DNA from: Rhodobacterales bacterium | GTDB taxonomy: Bacteria > Pseudomonadota > Alphaproteobacteria > Rhodobacterales > Rhodobacteraceae | Assembly: GCA_002748265.1 (NCBI GenBank) | Contig: PDRY01000016.1 | Span: forward strand, 248,001-312,000 | Length of the DNA: 64,000 nt | Direction: 5' to 3' | Part shown: positions 9,186 through 18,721 of the stretch, piece after piece | How positions within the stretch are numbered: position 1 is the first letter of the stretch | Layout of the letters: every line of letters begins with the position of its first letter | The notes under the pieces: generated by a model | Seen by the model: the letters and a program-made list of their open reading frames with translations, nothing else | The model's database searches: none | Told to the model about the DNA's origin: nothing | Translations under genes and position numbers: made by a program

Positions 9186-9202
9186 TGTCCTAAATCCGGA
9201 CA
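9186..9202. promoter_or_regulatory. Candidate operator before alcohol dehydrogenase gene
   Basis: Inverted repeat TGTCC-N7-GGACA, 55 bases before the dehydrogenase start. A dyad with the same GTCC-N7-GGAC core lies before the AcxR-like gene (10356-10370). No sigma-54 (-24/-12) element is evident around it. Confidence 0.45.
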
Positions 9203-9256
9203 CACTCGCGCGTCAGATCTTGTAGAATGAGTAGGAATCAATCGGAGGATGAAACC

Positions 9257-10294
9257 ATGAAAGCGCTTGAATTCCGTGGCCCGGGCGAAAAGGCTTGGGT
9301 GGAGAAGGACAAACCCGGCATCGAAAAGCCGACCGATGTGATCGTTAAAGTCACGAAGACGACGATCTGTGGGACCGATCTGCACATCCTCAAGGGCGAC
9401 GTCCCGGCTGTCACCAAGGGCCGGACACTGGGTCATGAGGGCGTCGGGATCGTCGAAGAAGTCGGCGCCGCAGTGCGCAACTTCAAAAAGGGCGATCCGG
9501 TTCTGATCTCTTGCGTTACCTCCTGCGGGGCCTGCCCGAACTGCAAGCGGCAGCTCTATGCGCATTGCTCCGATGGCGGCTGGATCCTGGGGCATCTGAT
9601 CGACGGCACTCAAGCCGAATATGTGCGCATCCCCCATGGCGACAACTCGCTCTATCCGATCCCGGATGGCGCGGATGAGGAAGCCCTGGTGATGCTGTCC
9701 GACATCATGCCCACCGGGCTGGAGATCGGCGTGCAATATGGCGGCGTTAAGCCCGGCGACACCGTTGCCATCGTGGGCGCCGGACCGGTCGGCATGTCGG
9801 TCCTGCTGACCGCGCAGTTCTATTCGCCCGGACGGATCATCATGGTCGATATGGACCCCGCGCGGCTGGAACTGGCCAAGACATTCGGCGCCACCGACAC
9901 CGTTGAGGTCGGCAAGGAAGACGCCGTGGCCCGCATCATGGAGATGACCGGCGGCGCCGGTGTCGACGTGGCGATTGAGGCCGTCGGCGTGCCCGCGACC
10001 TTTGATGTCTGTCAGAAGGTCGTCGCAGCGGGCGGCAATGTCGCCAATGTCGGCGTGCATGGCACCCCGGTCGAGCTGCATATCGAAGAGCTTTGGATCA
10101 AGAACATCAATATCTCGATGGGTCTGGTCTGCACCAACACCACGCCGATGCTGCTCAAGACGCTGCAATCGGGCAAGGTCGATCCGGCCCAGCTGGTGAC
10201 CCACCGGTTCAAGCTGGATGAGATCATGGACGCCTATGAGGTCTTCGCCAACGCCGCCCGCGAAAAGGCGATGAAGGTCATTCTGACCGCATGA
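9257..10294 (+). CDS. Zinc-dependent alcohol dehydrogenase (probable 2-propanol/secondary alcohol dehydrogenase)
   Basis: A medium-chain dehydrogenase of 345 residues. Catalytic zinc ligands are C38 (in ICGTDLH) and H60-E61 (GHEGVG); the structural zinc cysteines are C90, C93, C96 and C104. The Rossmann motif GAGPVG (about 174-179) is followed by an acidic residue near D198, which favours NAD over NADP. The ATG at 9257 has GGAGG nine bases upstream. It is followed by the AcxR-like regulator and the acetone carboxylase genes, so oxidation of 2-propanol to acetone is the most economical role, though the sequence alone does not fix the substrate. A dyad shared with the regulator promoter lies upstream. 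Confidence 0.85.
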   Translation: MKALEFRGPGEKAWVEKDKPGIEKPTDVIVKVTKTTICGTDLHILKGDVPAVTKGRTLGHEGVGIVEEVGAAVRNFKKGDPVLISCVTSCGACPNCKRQLYAHCSDGGWILGHLIDGTQAEYVRIPHGDNSLYPIPDGADEEALVMLSDIMPTGLEIGVQYGGVKPGDTVAIVGAGPVGMSVLLTAQFYSPGRIIMVDMDPARLELAKTFGATDTVEVGKEDAVARIMEMTGGAGVDVAIEAVGVPATFDVCQKVVAAGGNVANVGVHGTPVELHIEELWIKNINISMGLVCTNTTPMLLKTLQSGKVDPAQLVTHRFKLDEIMDAYEVFANAAREKAMKVILTA

Positions 10295-10353: not shown

Positions 10354-10372
10354 CCGTCCGAAAATCGGACGG
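10354..10372. promoter_or_regulatory. Palindromic operator before acxR-like gene
   Basis: A perfect 8-bp inverted repeat, CCGTCCGA and TCGGACGG, separated by three A bases. The core is GTCC-N7-GGAC, the same geometry as the dyad before the dehydrogenase gene at 9186-9202. It sits 116 bases before the regulator start and is a candidate autoregulatory site. It could also contribute to termination of the dehydrogenase transcript, but no T-run follows. Confidence 0.5.
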
Positions 10373-10487: not shown

Positions 10488-12275
10488 ATGCCACAGCGGC
10501 TCAACAAAACCGATTGGGAGGATTATCTGGCTGTCGGCCGTATCCCCCCGCAGATCAGGAGCGATGTGCTGCACAGTTGGCAGCGCTCGTCGGAGCAGCA
10601 CATTTCGCGTCTGAAACGTGCGCCGATCCTGAACGAAGAAGAGTTGCTGACCCGCCGGGCTCTGTCGCGGCGCCTGCGGATCAGCGCGCAAACCGCGCTC
10701 AGCCGGGCCGGACAGCTTCTGGACGACACCGGCAACATTCTGCTGCTATGCGACCGCTCCGGTGTCGTGGTGGACGCCGCCGGAGATCGCGCAACGCTCG
10801 ATCGGGGCCGCGAGAACCATCTGCATCTTGGTGGCAACTGGTCCGAACCGGCCATCGGCACCAATGCCATCGGCACGGCCCTTCATCTGGGGCGCCCCGT
10901 GACCATCCGCGAGGCCGAGCATTTTTGCGAGGAGATCCAGCTTTGGAACTGCGCCGCCGCTCCAATTTCCGAACCCGGATCGGGCGAGGTGATCGGCGTG
11001 GTGGATATCTCCTGGCGCAATGGCATTGACCACCAGCACAACGCAGCGGCCCTTTCGGCCACCATGGCCATGCAGATCGAAGCAGAGCTGCGCCGCATGC
11101 AGGAGCGCGAGCGCGCCGAGCTTATGGAAAAACTGCATCTGACACGGCTGCGGCGCGGCGGTGAGCCGATGCTGGTCATGGACCGCACGGGCTCGGATGT
11201 GTTCGCGACGGAGGACTTTGCCCGGTTTTGCAAGGATGACAGCGCCCTGCGAGACCTGCGCGCCCGGATCCCCACCCTGATCGACCAGCGGCCCGCGACC
11301 ATTGCAGAGGCCCTGTCGGACTGCATGCCGGGTATAGATCTGGAGGTGGTCGGCTCTGCCGAGGAAGCCATCGGCGTAATGATCTCTCTGCGCCGCTCTC
11401 GCCCGGCGAAAGCGGATCCCGGCGCCGAACTGACCCGGATCGGATCTGCAGGTCAGGCCGCAGCCCGGCTGTGCGCACATGCGCAGCGGCTGGCGCAGAC
11501 GGAAATCCCGATCCTGATCGAAGGAGAGACCGGCACCGGCAAAACCTTCATGGCCCGCGCGATCCACCGGGCAAGCGCCCAGTCCGATGCGCCGTTCGAG
11601 CTTCTGGATTGCGCGGGGCTGACGGATGAGGTGCTGCGCGATCATCTGGCATCGGGGCGCTTTGACCGCGCGGGCGTGCTTTGTCTGAATTCGCCCGGCG
11701 CCATATCGCTCTCCAACCAGAAGCTGCTCCTGGGCCTCGTGGAGCATGTGTCGGACCGGGGTGCGCGGATCATCGCGCTATCGACCCGGCATCTTTATGA
11801 CGAAATGTCCGAAGAGCGGTTCCGGGGGGATCTGTATTACCGGATCGCCGGCGCCCGGTTGGACATTCCGCCCTTGCGTGCGCGCCGTGACGAAATCGCG
11901 CCGATGCTGCGTGAGCTGGTGCGCCACCACGCGCTGACCAACGACGCCCGAGAGCTGCGCTTCACCTCCGGTGCCATGGCACGGCTGGTGGGCCATGCCT
12001 GGCCTGGCAATCTGCGCGAGATGCAGAACCTGATCGCAGCGCTTGATGCGCTCTCGCCCACTGGTCTGATCGACGAGGCGACCCTGCCGACGGAGTATCG
12101 CAGCGCCGCCCGCAAGACGGGCGAAAACACCTTGCGCGATGCGGAGCGGGCCCAGATCCTCGCCGCGATGGAGGCCGAGGGCGGCAACCTGACCCGCGTC
12201 GCCCGCCGTTTGGGGATCGCCCGCTCGACGCTCTATCTCAAACTGGATAGCTATGGGATCGAACGGAGTCGCTAA
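10488..12275 (+). CDS. acxR: AcoR/AcxR-type transcriptional regulator lacking the GAFTGA loop
   Basis: A 595-residue regulator with an N-terminal GAF-type sensor (about 75-200, with the family motif GTNAIGTAL), a central AAA+ domain (about 315-535) and a Fis-type helix-turn-helix (about 548-592, NLTRVARRLGIARSTLYLKL). Walker A is intact (GETGTGKT, 346-353) and the FRGDLYYRI arginine-finger segment is present. However, the stretch between the DCAG motif and Walker B is shortened and has no GAFTGA, and Walker B reads VLCLNSPG instead of a hydrophobic-DE form. Such proteins cannot remodel sigma-54 polymerase; NtrC and HupR of Rhodobacter capsulatus are known GAFTGA-less precedents working with the housekeeping sigma factor. 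The start follows GGGAGGGAGAG. The gene lies 11 bases before sulP. Confidence 0.85.
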   Translation: MPQRLNKTDWEDYLAVGRIPPQIRSDVLHSWQRSSEQHISRLKRAPILNEEELLTRRALSRRLRISAQTALSRAGQLLDDTGNILLLCDRSGVVVDAAGDRATLDRGRENHLHLGGNWSEPAIGTNAIGTALHLGRPVTIREAEHFCEEIQLWNCAAAPISEPGSGEVIGVVDISWRNGIDHQHNAAALSATMAMQIEAELRRMQERERAELMEKLHLTRLRRGGEPMLVMDRTGSDVFATEDFARFCKDDSALRDLRARIPTLIDQRPATIAEALSDCMPGIDLEVVGSAEEAIGVMISLRRSRPAKADPGAELTRIGSAGQAAARLCAHAQRLAQTEIPILIEGETGTGKTFMARAIHRASAQSDAPFELLDCAGLTDEVLRDHLASGRFDRAGVLCLNSPGAISLSNQKLLLGLVEHVSDRGARIIALSTRHLYDEMSEERFRGDLYYRIAGARLDIPPLRARRDEIAPMLRELVRHHALTNDARELRFTSGAMARLVGHAWPGNLREMQNLIAALDALSPTGLIDEATLPTEYRSAARKTGENTLRDAERAQILAAMEAEGGNLTRVARRLGIARSTLYLKLDSYGIERSR

Positions 12276-12286
12276 GTCCCACAATC

Positions 12287-13522
12287 ATGCGTCAGCCAAA
12301 GCTGCTCACCACACTCAAAACCTATGACCGGCAGCAGCTGGGCGCGGATCTCAAGGCGGGCGTCACGGTCGCAATGATCGCGCTGCCGCTCAGCCTCGCG
12401 ATCGCCATTGCCTCGGGCGCCGATCCCGGCACCGGGCTCATCACGGCGATCATCGGCGGCTTTTTCATCTCGGCCCTCGGGGGCAGCCGCGTACAGATCG
12501 GCGGGCCGACAGGGGCGTTCATCGTCGTCGTTTTCGGTATCATCGCCGAGCACGGGTATGACGGGCTGGTGCTGGCCACCCTGATGGCGGGTGTCCTGCT
12601 TTTGCTGGCGGGCGCGTTGCGCGCCGGGCGATTGGTTGCCCTGGTGCCAGAGCCGGTGATCAACGGCTTCACCATCGGGATCGCGATCATCATCGCCACC
12701 AGTCAGATCAAGACCTTCCTTGGCCTCGAACTTGCCCAGGAGCCCGCTGATTTTCTGGAAAAGCTGCCCGCGCTTTGGGGCGCGCGCGGCACGCTGAGCC
12801 TCTCCACATTGTGCATCGGGCTGGCCTCCATGGCGCTGATCGTTGTCTTGCGCCGCGCCGCGCCGCGTCAACCCGGCCTGATCGTCGCTGTCGCGATCAC
12901 CTCCGCACTCGTCGCGCTGTTTGGCCTGTCGGTGGAGACCCTGCACAGCCGCTTTGGCGCACTGCCGACGGCGCTCCCTGCCCCGGCATGGCCCGATCTG
13001 TCTATCGAGCGCATGATCGAACTGCTGCCCTCAGCCGTGATCATTGCCGTTTTGGCGGCGATTGAGTCCCTCTTGTCCGCGATCGTCGCGGACCGGATGA
13101 TCGAAGGCAATCACCGCCCCAATGCCGAACTGCTCGCCCAAGGGGTCGCCAACAGCGCCTCCGCCCTGTTCGGAGGGTTGCCGGTGACCGGCGCCATCGC
13201 GCGCACCGCGACCAATGTCCGCGCCGGGGGGCAAACGCCCATGGCGGGCATCTTTCATGCGCTCACGATCCTTATCGTGATGCTCGTCGCGGCCCCCGCG
13301 GCGGGACATCTGGCGATGCCCGCACTGGCGGCGCTGCTCATGCTCACCGCCTGGAACATGAGCGAGCCCGACAGATGGGCCTCCTACGCCCAGGCTCCGT
13401 GGCCGGATCGGGTGTTGCTCCTGATCACTCTGGCGCTGACGGTTCTGGTCGATCTGACGGTCGCCATCGGGGTCGGTGTCGCCCTGGATCTGCTGCTGCG
13501 CAGGCTGCGCGCCCGCCGCTAA
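12287..13522 (+). CDS. SulP family anion transporter without STAS domain
   Basis: A 411-residue inner-membrane protein with about ten to twelve hydrophobic segments. The SulP signature is at the N-terminus (LKAGVTVAMIALPLSLAIAIASGADPGTGLITAIIGGF) and the family segment GGLPVTGAIARTATNVRAGGQTPMAGIFHA lies around residues 300-330. The protein ends after the last membrane segment (LLLRRLRARR), so the cytosolic STAS domain of typical SulP proteins is absent. Members carry sulfate, bicarbonate (BicA) or other anions. Because it sits between the regulator and acetone carboxylase genes, and that enzyme consumes bicarbonate, bicarbonate uptake is a plausible role (inference). Confidence 0.87.
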   Translation: MRQPKLLTTLKTYDRQQLGADLKAGVTVAMIALPLSLAIAIASGADPGTGLITAIIGGFFISALGGSRVQIGGPTGAFIVVVFGIIAEHGYDGLVLATLMAGVLLLLAGALRAGRLVALVPEPVINGFTIGIAIIIATSQIKTFLGLELAQEPADFLEKLPALWGARGTLSLSTLCIGLASMALIVVLRRAAPRQPGLIVAVAITSALVALFGLSVETLHSRFGALPTALPAPAWPDLSIERMIELLPSAVIIAVLAAIESLLSAIVADRMIEGNHRPNAELLAQGVANSASALFGGLPVTGAIARTATNVRAGGQTPMAGIFHALTILIVMLVAAPAAGHLAMPALAALLMLTAWNMSEPDRWASYAQAPWPDRVLLLITLALTVLVDLTVAIGVGVALDLLLRRLRARR

Positions 13523-13548
13523 GGGGTGATGTAGCCGCGCAACCGCGC

Positions 13549-13642
13549 GTCCGCAGCATGTCCGTCAGCGCGCCCGATCATCGGACAATGCGCCGCTTTC
13601 GATCTGCGCCATCCTAGGTCTCAGCCGTACCCAATCCGGGAC
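13549..13642. promoter_or_regulatory. Candidate regulatory region before acetone carboxylase genes
   Basis: The 147-base gap between sulP and the beta-subunit gene has GTCC half-sites at 13549-13552 and 13560-13563 and GGAC half-sites at 13583-13586 and 13639-13642. TGTCCG (13559-13564) and CGGACA (13582-13587) form an inverted pair. The half-sites match the dyads at 9186-9202 and 10354-10372, though with wider spacing. No convincing TGGCAC-N5-TTGC sigma-54 promoter is seen. Confidence 0.35.
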
Positions 13643-13669
13643 GGTCGTGAGACATGGGAGGAGTTTTTC

Positions 13670-15823
13670 GTGCCACTGGACAAGAAAAACCAACGCTCTG
13701 TGCAGGTGCTTGGCATCGACGCGGGCGGGACAATGACGGACACGTTCTTCGTCGACGCGGATGGCGATTTCGTCGTCGGCAAGGCGCAATCGACGCCGGA
13801 CAACGAGGCCCGCGGGCTGATCGAATCCAGCCGTGAAGGGCTGGAGCATTGGGGGCTGAGCCTCGAAGAGGCGCTGTCCTCGATCCAGACAGGTGTCTAT
13901 TCCGGCACCGCGATGCTGAACCGCGTGGTGCAGCGCAAGGGCCTTAAAACCGGGCTGATCGTCAATGCGGGGATGGAGGATTTTCACCGCATGGGCCGCG
14001 CCTGTCAGGCCTATCTGGGCATGGCCTATGAGGACCGGATCCACCTGAACACGCACTATTACGACGATCCGCTGGTGCCCCGTCACCTGACCCGCGGCGT
14101 GATGGAGCGCATCGACATGTTCGGTGACGTCGTCATCCCGCTGCGCGAAGACACCGCCCGTCAGGCCGCGCAGGAGCTGATCGCGCAAGATGTCGAAGGC
14201 ATCGCGATTTCGCTGCTGCACAGCTACAAGAACCCGGGCCATGAGCGCCGCGTGCGCGACATTGTCGCCGAAGAGGTCGAAAAGGCGGGCAAAGAGATCC
14301 CGGTCTTTGCGTCCTGCGACTACTACCCGGTGCGCAAGGAAACGCATCGCACCAACACCACCGTGCTGGAGGCCTTCGCGGCGGAACCCAGCCGCCAGAC
14401 GCTGAAGAAGATCTCGGGCGAGTTCAAAGAGAACGGCTCCAAGTTCGACTTCCGCGTGATGGCGACCCATGGCGGCACCATTTCCTGGAAGGCCAAAGAG
14501 CTGGCGCGGACTATCGTGTCCGGTCCGATTGGCGGCGTGATCGGTGCGAAGTACCTCGGCGAAGTGCTGGGCTACAAGAATATCGCCTGCTCTGACATTG
14601 GCGGCACGTCCTTTGACGTGGCCCTGATCACCCAAGGCGAGCTGACCATTCAGAACGACCCGGATATGGCGCGCCTTGTGCTGTCGCTGCCTCTGGTCGG
14701 GCTGGATTCGGTCGGCGCGGGCGCCGGATCGTTCATCCGTCTTGATCCCTACACCAAGGCGATCAAGCTGGGCCCGGACAGCGCGGGCTACCGCGTGGGC
14801 GTGTGCTGGGCCGATAGCGGCATCGACACGGTGACCATCTCGGATTGCCACGTGATCCTGGGCTACCTGAACCCGGACAACTTCCTGGGCGGTCAGGTCA
14901 AGCTGGATCGTCAGCGCGCCTGGGACGCCATGAAAGAGCAGATCGCCGATCCGCTTGGCATCAGCGTCGAAGAGGCCGCCGCAGGCGTCATCGAACTGCT
15001 CGACTCCGATCTGCGCGACTACTTGAAGGCGTTGATTTCGGGCAAGGGATACTCGCCCTCTTCCTTCACGTGTTTCTCCTATGGCGGCGCCGGTCCGGTG
15101 CACACCTATGGCTACACCGAAGGTATGGGCTTTGAGGATGTCATCGTCCCGGCCTGGGCGGCGGGCTTCTCGGCCTTTGGCTGCGCGGCAGCCGATTTCG
15201 AGTATCGCTACGACAAATCCATGGACATCAACATTGCCGAAGAGGCCAGTGACGATGCCAAGGAAATCGAAGCCAAGATGATCAACGACGCCTGGCACGA
15301 ACTGGCGGAGAAGGTTCTCGAGGAGTTCGAGCTCAACGGCTACACCCGCGATCAGGTCGAGTTGCAGCCGGGCTACCGGATGCAGTATCGCGGCCAGCTC
15401 AACGATCTGGAGATCGAAAGCCCCATCGAGTCCGCGAAGACCGCCGCCGACTGGGACAAGCTGGTCGAAGCGTTCAACGACAAATATGGCCGCGTTTATG
15501 CCGCTTCGGCGCGCTCGCCCGAACTGGGCTACTCGGTCACCGGTGCCATCATGCGCGGCACCGTGCCGATCCCGAAACCCAACATCCCCAAGGAAGAAGA
15601 AGGCCCCGCCACGCCGCCCGAAGAGGCCAAGCTTGGTACCCGGGAATTCTACCGCAAGGGCAAATGGGTCGATGCGCAGGTCTATCAGATGGAGACGCTG
15701 ACGCCCGGCAACCGGATCACCGGCCCCGCCATTATCGAATCCGACGCCACGACCTTTGTTGTGCCTGGCGGTTTTGAGACCTGGCTCGACGGCCACCGCC
15801 TGTTCCACCTGACAGAAGTGTGA
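13670..15823 (+). CDS. acxA: Acetone carboxylase beta subunit
   Basis: A 717-residue protein of the hydantoinase A/oxoprolinase family, the right size for the acetone carboxylase beta subunit, which takes part in the ATP-dependent carboxylation of acetone to acetoacetate. The N-terminal phosphate-binding motif GIDAGGTMTDTFFVD (about 15-29) and the second nucleotide-binding region CSDIGGTSFDVALIT (about 307-321) are clear, as is the HGGTISWKAKELARTIVSGPIGG segment. The start is GTG at 13670, with GGGAGGA about ten bases upstream. It is the first of three adjacent subunit genes, with 22 bases to the next. Confidence 0.95.
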   Translation: MPLDKKNQRSVQVLGIDAGGTMTDTFFVDADGDFVVGKAQSTPDNEARGLIESSREGLEHWGLSLEEALSSIQTGVYSGTAMLNRVVQRKGLKTGLIVNAGMEDFHRMGRACQAYLGMAYEDRIHLNTHYYDDPLVPRHLTRGVMERIDMFGDVVIPLREDTARQAAQELIAQDVEGIAISLLHSYKNPGHERRVRDIVAEEVEKAGKEIPVFASCDYYPVRKETHRTNTTVLEAFAAEPSRQTLKKISGEFKENGSKFDFRVMATHGGTISWKAKELARTIVSGPIGGVIGAKYLGEVLGYKNIACSDIGGTSFDVALITQGELTIQNDPDMARLVLSLPLVGLDSVGAGAGSFIRLDPYTKAIKLGPDSAGYRVGVCWADSGIDTVTISDCHVILGYLNPDNFLGGQVKLDRQRAWDAMKEQIADPLGISVEEAAAGVIELLDSDLRDYLKALISGKGYSPSSFTCFSYGGAGPVHTYGYTEGMGFEDVIVPAWAAGFSAFGCAAADFEYRYDKSMDINIAEEASDDAKEIEAKMINDAWHELAEKVLEEFELNGYTRDQVELQPGYRMQYRGQLNDLEIESPIESAKTAADWDKLVEAFNDKYGRVYAASARSPELGYSVTGAIMRGTVPIPKPNIPKEEEGPATPPEEAKLGTREFYRKGKWVDAQVYQMETLTPGNRITGPAIIESDATTFVVPGGFETWLDGHRLFHLTEV

Positions 15824-15845
15824 CGGGCAAGGGAGGAGAAAACCC

Positions 15846-18155
15846 ATGAATATTCAAACGACAACCAAAGGCATCGTGCGTGGCGGGCAAACGCTCAAGC
15901 AGCACCGCGACCAGATCATGGATGCCACCAAAGCGACCGGCCACTACGCCGGTCTGAAGGAACGGGCGCTGCAGAAGGAAAGCCCGATCCTCTATAACAA
16001 GCTGTTCTCGCGCCTTCGGGCCGGGGTGGTGGATGCGCGCGAAACCGCGAAAAAGATCGCCGCCTCGCCCATCGTGGAGCAGGAAGGTGAGCTGTGCTTC
16101 ACGCTCTATAACGCGGCCGGGGACAGCATCCTGACCTCCACGGGGATCATCATCCACGTGGGCACCATGGGCGCGGCGATCAAATACATGATCGAAAACG
16201 ATTGGGAGGGAAATCCCGGCATCGCCGACAAGGATATCTTTACCAACAACGATCCGCTGATCGGGAACGTCCACCCCTGCGACATCCACACGATCGTGCC
16301 CATCTTCCACGAAGGTGAGCTGATCGGCTGGGTTGGCGGCGTGACCCACGTGATCGACACCGGGGCGGTTGGCCCGGGCTCAATGACCACAGGTCAGGTG
16401 CAACGGTTCGGGGATGGCTATTCGGTCACCTGCCGCAAGACCGGCGCCAATGACGAGCTGTTCCGCGACTGGCTGCATGAATCGCAGCGCTCGGTGCGGA
16501 CCACGCGGTACTGGATGCTCGACGAGCGGACCCGCGTCGCGGGCTGCCACATGATCCGCGACCTCGTTGAGGAAGTGATCGCCGAAGACGGCATCGAAGC
16601 CTATTGGAAGTTCGCCTATGAGGCGGTCGAGCATGGCCGGGTCGGCCTGCAAAACCGCATCAAGGCGATGACCATTCCGGGCACCTACCGTCAGGTCGGC
16701 TTCGTCGATGTGCCTTACGCCCATGAGGACGTGCATGTGCCCTCGACCTTCGCCAAGGTCGACACGATCATGCACACCCCGTCCGAGATGACGATCAGGC
16801 CGGACGGGACGTGGAGGCTCGATTTCGAGGGCTCAAGCCGATGGGGTTGGCACACCTATAACGCCCACGCGGTGTCCTTTACCTCGGGCATCTGGGTGAT
16901 GATGACCCAGACGTTGATCCCGTCCGAGATGATCAACGACGGTGCGGCCTACGGGACGGAGTTCCGATTGCCAAAAGGCACCTGGATGAACCCGGACGAC
17001 CGGCGCGTGGCCTATGCCTACAGCTGGCACTTCCTGGTGTCCTCCTGGACAGCACTGTGGCGCGGGCTCTCGCGGTCCTATTTCGGGCGCGGCTACCTCG
17101 AAGAGGTGAACGCGGGCAATGCCAACACCTCCAACTGGCTGCAAGGCGGCGGGTTCAACCAGTATGACGAAATTCATGCGGTGAACTCCTTCGAATGCGC
17201 GGCCAACGGGGTTGGGGCATCGGCCTTCTCCGATGGGATCTCCCACGCGGCGGCCATCTGGAACCCCGAAGGCGATATGGGCGACATGGAGATCTGGGAG
17301 CTGGCCGAACCGCTGGTTTACCTGGGCCGCCAGGTCAAAGCCTCCTCGGGCGGCGCGGGCAAGTATCGCGGCGGTTGCGGGTTCGAAAGCCTGCGCATGG
17401 TCTGGAACGCCAAGGACTGGACGATGTTCTTCATGGGTAACGGTCATATCAGCTCCGATTGGGGTCTGATGGGCGGCTATCCGGCAGCATCGGGCTATCG
17501 GTTTGAAGCCCATGACACCGGGCTCAAGCAGAAGATCGCCAATGGCGAGCCGATCCCCTTTGGCGGCGATACCGACCCGGAGAACCCGATCTATGACGGG
17601 CTGATCAACCCGGAGGGCATCAAGCGCGACAAGCAGGCCATCACCACCGAAGACATGTTCGAGGATCACGATCTGTACCTCAACTACATGCGCGGTGGGC
17701 CGGGCTTTGGCGATCCGCTGGATCGCGAACCCTCCTCCGTGGCGGACGACGTCAATGGCGGCTACCTGCTCGAACGCTTTGCGGAGCGCGTCTACGGCGT
17801 CATCCTGACCGAGGGCGCGGATGGCCTGAAGGCCGCCGATGAGACCGCGACCGAGGCGAAGCGCGCCGAGATCCGCAAGGATCGTCTGGCCAAGGCCGTG
17901 CCCACCAAGGAGTGGATGGCCAAGGAGCGCGAGCGCATCCTGAACAAGGACACCGGTGTCCATGTGCAGCAGATGTATGCCTCCAGCTTCAAGCTGGGGC
18001 CGACCTGGGCACAGGGCTTCCGCGAGTTCTGGGATCTGCCGGAGAGTTGGGACCTGAAGGAAGAGGATCTGCCGATCCCCTCCTATGGCCGCGAATACTC
18101 GATGGACCTTTCCGAGCTGCCGGACGTGAAAACCGTCCAGTTCGTCGAGGAATAA
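15846..18155 (+). CDS. acxB: Acetone carboxylase alpha subunit
   Basis: A 769-residue hydantoinase B-family protein matching the acetone carboxylase alpha subunit in length and content. Diagnostic stretches include TNNDPLIGNVHPCDIHTIVPIFHEGELIGWVGGVTHVIDTGAVGPGSMTTG (about 137-187), the tryptophan-rich WRLDFEGSSRWGWHTYNAH, and AIWNPEGDMGDMEIWELAEP. In the known enzyme this subunit with the others forms an alpha2-beta2-gamma2 complex with a metal centre. A GGAGG site lies before the ATG. It is co-directional with and probably co-transcribed with the beta and gamma genes. Confidence 0.95.
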   Translation: MNIQTTTKGIVRGGQTLKQHRDQIMDATKATGHYAGLKERALQKESPILYNKLFSRLRAGVVDARETAKKIAASPIVEQEGELCFTLYNAAGDSILTSTGIIIHVGTMGAAIKYMIENDWEGNPGIADKDIFTNNDPLIGNVHPCDIHTIVPIFHEGELIGWVGGVTHVIDTGAVGPGSMTTGQVQRFGDGYSVTCRKTGANDELFRDWLHESQRSVRTTRYWMLDERTRVAGCHMIRDLVEEVIAEDGIEAYWKFAYEAVEHGRVGLQNRIKAMTIPGTYRQVGFVDVPYAHEDVHVPSTFAKVDTIMHTPSEMTIRPDGTWRLDFEGSSRWGWHTYNAHAVSFTSGIWVMMTQTLIPSEMINDGAAYGTEFRLPKGTWMNPDDRRVAYAYSWHFLVSSWTALWRGLSRSYFGRGYLEEVNAGNANTSNWLQGGGFNQYDEIHAVNSFECAANGVGASAFSDGISHAAAIWNPEGDMGDMEIWELAEPLVYLGRQVKASSGGAGKYRGGCGFESLRMVWNAKDWTMFFMGNGHISSDWGLMGGYPAASGYRFEAHDTGLKQKIANGEPIPFGGDTDPENPIYDGLINPEGIKRDKQAITTEDMFEDHDLYLNYMRGGPGFGDPLDREPSSVADDVNGGYLLERFAERVYGVILTEGADGLKAADETATEAKRAEIRKDRLAKAVPTKEWMAKERERILNKDTGVHVQQMYASSFKLGPTWAQGFREFWDLPESWDLKEEDLPIPSYGREYSMDLSELPDVKTVQFVEE

Positions 18156-18217
18156 GATCCCTTGGGTGCGCCGCAGCCTCCCTGTGGCGCACCCCCTTTT
18201 CCAAAAGGAGTAAAGAA

Positions 18218-18721
18218 ATGGCTTACACAAAGGCAAAGATCAAAGACCTGGTCGATGGCTCGATCGACCGCGATACGCTGCACACCATGCTGTCCACGCC
18301 CAAGGATGGGGACCGCTTTGTGAAATACATCGAAGTGCTGCAGGAGCAGGTGCCGTGGAAAGACCGGATCATCCTGCCTCTGGGGCCGAAGCTGTTCATC
18401 GTGCAGCGGGCCTCGGACAAGAAATGGGTGGTCAAGTCGCTGGCCGGTTACGAGTTCTGCGACTGGAAGGAGAACTGGAAGCTCCACGCCGTGATGCGGG
18501 TCCGGGAAACCGCCGAGGACATGGAAGAGCTGTATCCCCGTCTCATGGCGCCCTCCACCGACTGGCAGGTGATCCGGGAATACTACTGCCCCGCATCCGG
18601 TGATCTGCTTGATGTCGAAGCGCCCACGCCCTGGTATCCTGTGATCCACGACTTCGAGCCGGATATCGACGCCTTCTACACGGAATGGCTGGGGCTCGAG
18701 CTGCCCGAACGCGCGGCCTGA
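18218..18721 (+). CDS. acxC: Acetone carboxylase gamma subunit
   Basis: A 167-residue small subunit of acetone carboxylase, beginning MAYTKAKIKDLVDGSIDRDTLHTML and containing the conserved YEFCDWKENWKLHA segment and a second cysteine in REYYCPASGDLLDVEAP, with the ending WYPVIHDFEPDIDAFYTEWL. The ATG at 18218 is preceded by AAGGAG. It lies 62 bases after the alpha subunit, and a strong terminator follows, closing the operon. Confidence 0.95.
   Translation: MAYTKAKIKDLVDGSIDRDTLHTMLSTPKDGDRFVKYIEVLQEQVPWKDRIILPLGPKLFIVQRASDKKWVVKSLAGYEFCDWKENWKLHAVMRVRETAEDMEELYPRLMAPSTDWQVIREYYCPASGDLLDVEAPTPWYPVIHDFEPDIDAFYTEWLGLELPERAA

What the first reader, a model, noticed from the sequence alone, without database searches (positions are those of the whole stretch)
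10488..12275. Acetone-pathway regulator has lost the sigma-54 contact loop
Seen: the AcoR/AcxR-type protein has intact Walker A and FRGDLYYRI arginine-finger segments, but no GAFTGA between the DCAG motif and the Walker B position, which reads VLCLNSPG. Known: GAFTGA is needed to engage sigma-54, and R. capsulatus NtrC and HupR lack it and work with the housekeeping sigma factor. Inference: this branch of acetone regulators has moved away from sigma-54, in line with the lack of a visible -24/-12 promoter before the carboxylase genes.
Basis: partly seen in the sequence, partly recalled or inferred. Interest (0 to 1): 0.72.

Follow-up and report, generated by a model that had tools for sequence, protein, structure and literature searches.

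The report
Acetone regulator that abandoned sigma-54
A bacterial switch protein for acetone use comes from a lineage that once drove a special gene-reading factor (sigma-54) with an ATP-powered motor; in this branch the motor parts are gone and the control DNA next to its genes looks rebuilt, as if it now works with the ordinary transcription machinery.

Summary
Confirmed and extended. The AcoR/AcxR-type protein at 10488-12275 has no GAFTGA. It belongs to one well-supported clade (49 of 92 tree rows) in which loops L1 and L2 and, but for one row, the switch asparagine are lost too; the window's sub-branch has also lost the Walker B acidic pair (LCLNSPG). Walker A is kept in 120 of 120 listed proteins. 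Outside the clade, 35 of 35 named-locus regulators, Xanthobacter included, keep GAFTGA (or GSFTGA/GTFTGA), the asparagine and Walker B. Promoters follow: a -24/-12 site precedes acxA in 29 of 29 GAFTGA+ loci and 0 of 41 GAFTGA- loci. Both groups share a 17-bp palindrome, TGTCCG-N5-CGGACA: 65-130 nt before the -24 element in GAFTGA+ loci, exactly 22 nt before a -10-like hexamer in 37 of 41 GAFTGA- loci. No rpoN was found in the window's genome (88% complete) or in 12 of 43 GAFTGA- genomes searched, acetone-degrading Paracoccus solventivorans among them. Best reading: a former sigma-54 enhancer-binding protein turned class II-type activator of sigma-70 RNA polymerase. GAFTGA loss is known in NtrC, HupR, DhaR and TyrR; this acetone case was not found in print in nine searches, but the key 2002 acx paper is not held. 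Nothing was tested at the bench.

The parts
10488..12275 (+). AcoR/AcxR-type regulator without GAFTGA (GAF, AAA, Fis HTH), 595 aa
10689..11090 (+). GAF sensor domain (residues 68-201); the N-terminal region (23-224) fits E. coli DhaR(N) best
11523..11546 (+). Walker A GETGTGKT, kept (GxxGxGK in 120 of 120 listed proteins, query included)
11610..11675 (+). Shortened helix-2 stretch where loop L1 with GAFTGA should be
11676..11699 (+). Former Walker B, VLCLNSPG: DE replaced by NS
11718..11768 (+). Shortened stretch QKLLLGLVEHVSDRGAR where loop L2 (pre-sensor I) should be
   Evidence: 17 residues here against 26-27 in 44 GAFTGA+ rows
11820..11846 (+). Arginine-finger segment FRGDLYYRI, kept
12129..12254 (+). 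Fis-type HTH (residues 548-589)
13547..13564 (+). Upstream half-sites GCGTCCGCAGCATGTCCG of the conserved acxA control region
   Evidence: conserved block; half-site pair in 39 of 41 loci
13571..13587 (+). acxA operator palindrome (CGCCCGATCATCGGACA; 10 of 12 to TGTCCG-N5-CGGACA)
13610..13615 (+). -10-like hexamer CATCCT, exactly 22 nt after the operator
   Evidence: A2 and T6 at +22 in 37 of 41 loci
10355..10371 (+). Operator-like palindrome CGTCCGAAAATCGGACG upstream of the regulator gene (possible autoregulation)
9186..9202 (+). Operator-like palindrome TGTCCTAAATCCGGACA upstream of the alcohol dehydrogenase
9223..9228 (+). TAGAAT, -10-like, 20 nt after that palindrome
   Evidence: sequence
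9257..10294 (+). Zinc alcohol dehydrogenase, perhaps making acetone from 2-propanol (function inferred; start chosen at MKALEFRG)
   Evidence: Pfam; homologues with the operator in other loci
13670..15823 (+). acxA (hydantoinase A-type subunit)
   Evidence: copies 84-95% identical beside GAFTGA- relatives
15846..18155 (+). acxB (hydantoinase B-type subunit)
18218..18721 (+). acxC (Acetone_carb_G; start chosen at MAYTKAKIKD inside ORF 17912-18721)
   Evidence: Pfam PF08882 179 bits; start

Best explanation
The protein is the acetone-operon regulator AcxR of a clade found mostly in Rhodobacterales that was converted from a sigma-54 enhancer-binding protein into a direct activator of an ordinary RNA polymerase holoenzyme. 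Its GAF domain senses acetone or a related signal (inferred). Walker A and the arginine fingers are kept, so ATP is probably still bound, perhaps for oligomerisation (inferred); the residues for ATP hydrolysis and for mechanical coupling to sigma-54 (switch Asn, L1, Walker B, L2) are lost (shown by sequence). Through its Fis-type HTH it binds TGTCCG-N5-CGGACA (inferred from conservation), which ends 22 nt before a -10-like hexamer, about -51 to -35 if that hexamer is the -10, and recruits RNA polymerase as a class II activator at a promoter without a recognisable -35 (inferred). Targets: acxABC, the alcohol dehydrogenase and, in the window's subclade, probably its own gene.
For: Single GAFTGA- clade, 49 rows, SH-aLRT 100, in a tree built without the L1 and Walker B columns. 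Switch Asn in 35 of 35 GAFTGA+ but 1 of 49 GAFTGA- named loci; Walker B DE 35 of 35 against 19 of 49. L2 stretch 26-27 residues in 44 GAFTGA+ rows, 17-22 in 54 of 55 GAFTGA- rows. Walker A in 120 of 120, arginine fingers in 108 and 107 of 120. -24/-12 site before acxA in 29 of 29 GAFTGA+ loci (scores 10.2 or more) and 0 of 44 GAFTGA- rows (best 8.2; 41 without duplicates); reverse-strand control 0 of 29 and 0 of 44 at p 0.01. Also in 4 of 4 loci found through acxC and about 70% alike in acxA, 3 of them with a GAFTGA+ regulator in the stretch fetched. Same palindrome in both groups, 5-nt spacer only, 10 of 12 or better in 27 of 29 GAFTGA+ loci, 65-130 nt before the -24 element there. In GAFTGA- loci A at position 2 and T at position 6 of a hexamer at exactly +22 in 37 of 41 (27 of 31 representatives), 6 or fewer at any other offset from 8 to 44; GAFTGA+ loci 1 of 29. 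No TTGACA-like -35: at most 3 of 6 matches at spacers 15-19 in 41 of 41. No rpoN by two domains in the window genome and 12 others. Published: L1 and L2 contact sigma-54 and the -12 region (PMC7175178, passages); AcxR of Xanthobacter and Cupriavidus has GAFTGA and a sigma-54 promoter (PMC2864759, passages).
Against: No experiment on a member of the clade was found. The 49 rows are one evolutionary transition, so the co-loss of loop and promoter is one event, not 41 independent ones; several GAFTGA+ loci are near-duplicates too. CATCCT is a weak -10. The Sensor II arginine is kept in only 69 of 120 proteins, which weakens the claim of normal ATP binding. 31 of 43 GAFTGA- genomes keep rpoN. The palindrome alone is not enriched in the window genome (6 sites against 16 for the reversed control) or clearly in the window (8 against 4.07 expected, 8 of 100 shuffles as high). 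At dehydrogenase genes with their own regulator paralogue the operator is present, but in four of five loci (L065, L074, L075, L089; not L080) no -10-like hexamer sits at +22. The window's genome is 88% complete, so a missing rpoN is not proof.
Confidence: 0.78

Rival explanations
1. The protein is sigma-54-independent but mainly a repressor or dual regulator (as TyrR is) that blocks a sigma-70 promoter and is relieved by acetone.
For: The operator lies next to the core promoter, where a repressor would also work; DhaR is annotated as a dual regulator; an operator-like site lies upstream of the regulator's own gene in the window.
Against: The operator-to-hexamer distance is fixed at 22 nt in 37 of 41 loci, and no TTGACA-like -35 stands at normal spacing (at most 3 of 6 matches), which fits an activator-dependent promoter; the GAFTGA+ relatives are of an activator family.
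Confidence: 0.13
2. The regulator is a decaying, non-functional bEBP and acx is now constitutive or controlled by something else.
For: Walker B, L1, L2 and the switch Asn are degraded.
Against: Long open frames in the loci examined, Walker A in 120 of 120 listed proteins, invariant HTH residues such as R579-Y583 in 63 aligned proteins, and an operator conserved beside it.
Confidence: 0.03
3. It still works with sigma-54, by forming mixed rings with a GAFTGA-bearing partner.
For: 31 of 43 genomes of the clade keep rpoN.
Against: 0 of 44 upstream regions has a -24/-12 site; 12 of 43 clade genomes and the window genome show no rpoN; the one other bEBP-like hit in the window genome (L001) also lacks GAFTGA.
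Confidence: 0.02
4. It activates an alternative sigma factor of the sigma-70 family rather than the housekeeping one.
For: The common hexamer CATCCT departs from TATAAT at positions 1, 4 and 5.
Against: In the 10 acx-linked dehydrogenase rows the hexamer at the same +22 spacing begins with TA: TAGGGT twice, TAGACT twice, TACACT, TAGAGT, TACAAA twice, TAAGTC, TAGCCA, which is nearer a housekeeping -10.
Confidence: 0.1

Closest known systems
AcxR of Xanthobacter and Cupriavidus (sigma-54-dependent acetone regulator)
   Same: Same domain order, adjacent acxABC genes in most loci (GAFTGA+ relatives 31-39% identical to the window protein), same palindrome TGTCCG-N5-CGGACA upstream of Xanthobacter acxA
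   Different: It has GAFTGA and a -24/-12 promoter (PMC2864759; L067), plus L2, switch Asn and Walker B DE; the window protein has none of these
Rhodobacter capsulatus NtrC and HupR; Rhodobacterales and Caulobacter NtrC (GAFTGA-less bEBPs)
   Same: L1 with GAFTGA deleted; regulation at sigma-70 promoters reported (PMC3162934, PMC10274813, passages)
   Different: Response regulators of nitrogen or hydrogenase control, another branch of bEBPs (recalled; not placed in a tree here)
E. coli DhaR
   Different: DhaR keeps an L2-like stretch and a longer L1 remnant and does not group with the clade, though its branch is very long and its place unsure; its sensor domain binds DhaK and DhaL (titles of 4lrx, 4lrz)
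TyrR, PhhR and VpsR
   Same: Other bEBP-derived regulators reported or proposed to have lost sigma-54 (PMC3162934, passages)
   Different: Other pathways and sensor parts (recalled)

Membership tests
sigma-54-dependent enhancer-binding protein | GAFTGA motif in loop L1 | tested here: not met
   Absent in the window protein and in all 120 listed proteins, query included
sigma-54-dependent enhancer-binding protein | Walker B DE and switch Asn for ATP hydrolysis coupling | tested here: not met
   NS and Asp in their place
sigma-54-dependent enhancer-binding protein | Loop L2 | tested here: not met
   17 residues against 26-27
sigma-54-dependent enhancer-binding protein | -24/-12 promoter at the target operon | tested here: not met
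   Best score -1.9, p 0.92
sigma-54-dependent enhancer-binding protein | rpoN in the genome | tested here: inconclusive
   None found with PF04552 or PF04963, but the genome is 88% complete
AcxR lineage (acetone-carboxylase regulator) | GAF, AAA, Fis HTH architecture | tested here: met
AcxR lineage (acetone-carboxylase regulator) | In one locus with acxABC | tested here: met
   Window layout; acxA over 60% identical in the locus for 42 of 49 GAFTGA- and 30 of 35 GAFTGA+ named loci
AcxR lineage (acetone-carboxylase regulator) | Shared operator with GAFTGA+ AcxR | tested here: met
   Same palindrome and spacer in both groups; 10 of 12 in the window
AcxR lineage (acetone-carboxylase regulator) | Acetone-dependent activation of acxABC | not testable with these tools
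   Needs expression data
GAFTGA-less sigma-70-acting bEBP (NtrC of R. capsulatus, DhaR) | L1 lost, P-loop kept | tested here: met
GAFTGA-less sigma-70-acting bEBP (NtrC of R. capsulatus, DhaR) | Acts on a sigma-70 promoter | tested here: inconclusive
   -10-like element at fixed spacing; no start site mapped

The most novel reading that the evidence does not exclude
The clade preserves a stepwise conversion of an enhancer-type sigma-54 activator into a recruiting class II activator. Contact loops L1 and L2 and the switch Asn went first, while the Walker B pair survives in several sub-branches; hydrolysis residues then decayed in others, the window's included. In parallel the acx promoter kept its operator but exchanged a -24/-12 core, worked from 65-130 nt away, for a -10 core at a rigid 22 nt. 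It would be a natural before-and-after pair for how a regulator changes sigma factor without losing its regulon.
Probability: 0.7. Interest if true: 0.7.

Novelty: new variant of a known kind. Interest (0 to 1): 0.62.

Why it matters
GAFTGA-less enhancer-binding proteins are known singly, but here related operons with the same operator exist in both states, so protein change and promoter change can be read together. It makes the question of how an activator switches sigma factor directly testable in organisms such as Rhodobacter capsulatus, whose homologue (P0022, 63% identical) belongs to the GAFTGA-less group and whose rpoN is well studied (recalled). It also warns that the name 'sigma-54-dependent Fis family transcriptional regulator', carried by a number of these proteins, is misleading for the clade.

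Tried and rejected
Chance or assembly error: rejected, because the feature is clade-wide. Loss driven by loss of rpoN: not supported as a general cause, since 31 of 43 GAFTGA- genomes keep rpoN; 27 of 28 GAFTGA+ genomes do. Shared ancestry with DhaR: the tree does not group them, but the DhaR branch is very long and its place unsure. Genome-wide operator search as a regulon predictor: the palindrome core is not enriched over its reversed control, so no wider regulon is claimed. A sample through acxC gave few strong loci: in the family 8 of 296 genomes had PF08882, 4 of them with 177 bits or more, and these 4 carry GAFTGA- regulators; the other 4 were weaker (30-140 bits). In the class 28 of 387 genomes had PF08882; I fetched 10 stretches for and for two regulator loci. 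Of these, L113-L116 have a -24/-12 site before acxA and L112 one before a distant homologue; L117, L118, L120 and L121, with acxA homologues 23-42% identical and no AcxR-type regulator found in the stretch, have none in 500 nt; L119 was not scanned. A first pattern run was off by one base and was replaced. A small DNA alignment used badly chosen coordinates for L023 and was dropped. Of the other Sigma54_activat hits in the window genome, L003-L005 are other AAA proteins (ClpA/ClpB- and MoxR-like by eye, recalled). Literature: nine library searches. None of the listings or passages seen describes a GAFTGA-less acetone regulator; Sluis 2002 on the R. capsulatus and Xanthobacter acx genes and Bowman and Kranz 1998 are not held and were not read, so it may already be noted there.

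Full report
What is there. The window (C27:248001-312000 of a 2.79 Mb genome, 88% complete) holds a zinc alcohol dehydrogenase (9257-10294), the regulator (10488-12275), a SulP-family transporter (12287-13522; by its solved relatives) and acxA, acxB and acxC (13670-18721), all on the + strand. The regulator is a GAF, sigma-54-activator AAA, Fis-HTH protein of 595 aa.

Phylogeny. In a tree of 92 rows without the L1-Walker B columns, the GAFTGA- proteins form one clade (49 rows, SH-aLRT 100), with one further loss, L018, elsewhere. Inside the clade the Walker B pair is kept in some branches (for example Paracoccus denitrificans, Neomegalonema, Breoghania) and lost in others, which suggests that contact loops went first and hydrolysis residues later. 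The tree is a quick search without bootstrap, rooted on two rows of choice.

Promoters. Upstream of acxA, 29 of 29 GAFTGA+ loci score 10.2 or more on a -24/-12 matrix (shuffled p 0.02 or less; 21 of 29 at 0.01 or less), mostly about 50 nt before the start; the 44 GAFTGA- regions score at most 8.2 (lowest p 0.04). The weights are my own approximation of the recalled consensus, and some GAFTGA+ loci are near-duplicates (L067/L068, L070/L071, L081/L085, L093/L096). Four loci found through acxC rather than through the regulator also carry TGGCACG-N4-TTGC, three of them with a GAFTGA+ regulator in the stretch fetched; two with acxA about 40% identical and no such regulator do not (L117, L118). PMC2864759 reports GAFTGA and a sigma-54 promoter for Xanthobacter and Cupriavidus (passages), and PMC2244623 says, citing its reference 15, that X. 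autotrophicus regulates acxABC through sigma-54 and AcxR (passage).

The replacement. In the 41 GAFTGA- upstream regions a block like GCGTCCGCAGCATGTCCG-N9-CGAAAATCGGACA is conserved, its left half-site pair in 39 of 41. Its right part is a palindrome, TGTCCG-N5-CGGACA, degenerate on the left in the window's subclade, which also occurs at 10 of 12 or better in 27 of 29 GAFTGA+ regions; of spacers 0-12 only 5 stands out in both sets. In those 27 GAFTGA+ loci it lies 65-130 nt (median 77) before the -24 element, as an enhancer would. In GAFTGA- loci a hexamer with A at position 2 and T at position 6 stands exactly 22 nt after it in 37 of 41 (27 of 31 representatives under 70% alike); no other offset from 8 to 44 exceeds 6. 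No TTGACA-like -35 stands at spacers 15-19 (at most 3 of 6 matches in 41 of 41). If that hexamer is the -10, the palindrome covers about -51 to -35, a class II position. Upstream of dehydrogenase genes in 17 rows of the clade (some near-duplicates) the palindrome is present at 11 of 12 or better in 17 of 17; TA stands at +22 in 10 of 17, all acx-linked. The dehydrogenase genes that follow a regulator paralogue (L065, L074, L075, L089) lack a -10 there; L080 has CATTCT. In the window the three sites are 9186-9202 (dehydrogenase, with TAGAAT 20, not 22, nt later), 10355-10371 (regulator) and 13571-13587 (acxA, CATCCT at 13610-13615). By palindrome alone these would not stand out from chance in the window (8 sites against 4.07 expected); the evidence is their conserved position.

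Sigma-54 itself. No rpoN was found in the window genome with either of two domains. In the family, 95 of 296 sampled genomes pass the rpoN cut-off. Of 43 genomes holding GAFTGA- regulators 31 have rpoN and 12 do not; of 28 with GAFTGA+ regulators 27 do. The 12 comprise 7 MAGs and 5 isolates (Paracoccus solventivorans DSM 6637, P. aminovorans, P. yeei, Pseudodonghicola flavimaris, and Paenirhodobacter enshiensis, whose regulator is the dehydrogenase-linked kind); they were negative for a second rpoN domain too, while 6 of 6 rpoN-bearing controls rang. P. solventivorans was described as acetone-degrading (title of Siller 1996 seen in the reference list of PMC3281130). Most of these are drafts of unknown completeness, but together they make sigma-54 dependence of acetone use in the clade unlikely. 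The one other bEBP-like hit in the window genome (L001) also lacks GAFTGA.

Mechanism. Shown: the parts lost and kept, the shared palindrome, the fixed spacing, the absence of -24/-12 sites. Inferred: DNA binding by this protein to the palindrome, sensing of acetone, ATP binding without hydrolysis, recruitment of the housekeeping holoenzyme. The published parallel is R. capsulatus NtrC, reported to act through sigma-70 with the L1 loop deleted; PMC10274813 says that some such proteins act without ATP hydrolysis (passages).

Limits. One clade is one event. The loci were chosen by similarity to the regulator. No expression data were available. Prior description in Sluis 2002, not held, cannot be excluded.

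Noticed in passing
window 12287-13522: A SulP-family transporter gene sits between the regulator and acxA, 11 nt after the regulator; no other locus of the set searched listed a match to it. Its best solved relative is 6ki1 (E 1e-41), which I recall as the cyanobacterial bicarbonate transporter BicA; bicarbonate is a substrate of acetone carboxylase.
   Followed up: partly
window 13616-13656 and GAFTGA- relatives: Between the -10-like hexamer and the Shine-Dalgarno sequence GGGAGGA of acxA a hairpin is predicted in most of 41 loci with differing stem sequences (median z -1.7 against mononucleotide shuffles, z below -1 in 80%); possibly a 5' mRNA stabiliser or RNA control element. Covariation was not tested.
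   Followed up: partly
G046, G073, G075, G112, G208, G292: In six Rhodobacteraceae genomes a GAFTGA+ AcoR-type gene lies 10-17 kb from an rpoN copy on the same contig, which suggests clusters with their own sigma-54.
   Followed up: no
L112 (G041:C58): A genome with a GAFTGA- acx regulator on another contig (L010) also has a GAFTGA+ relative (L022) beside hydantoinase A/B-type genes, with TGGCATCAACCCTGCT upstream and an rpoN copy within 3 kb of the regulator: both kinds in one cell.
   Followed up: partly
L018 (G120:C185): A distant AcoR-type protein with an apparently independent loss of GAFTGA, in a genome without an rpoN hit.
   Followed up: no
L065, L074, L075, L089: Paralogues of the GAFTGA- regulator stand directly upstream of an alcohol dehydrogenase gene with a perfect or near-perfect operator between them: a second, dehydrogenase-linked branch.
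   Followed up: partly
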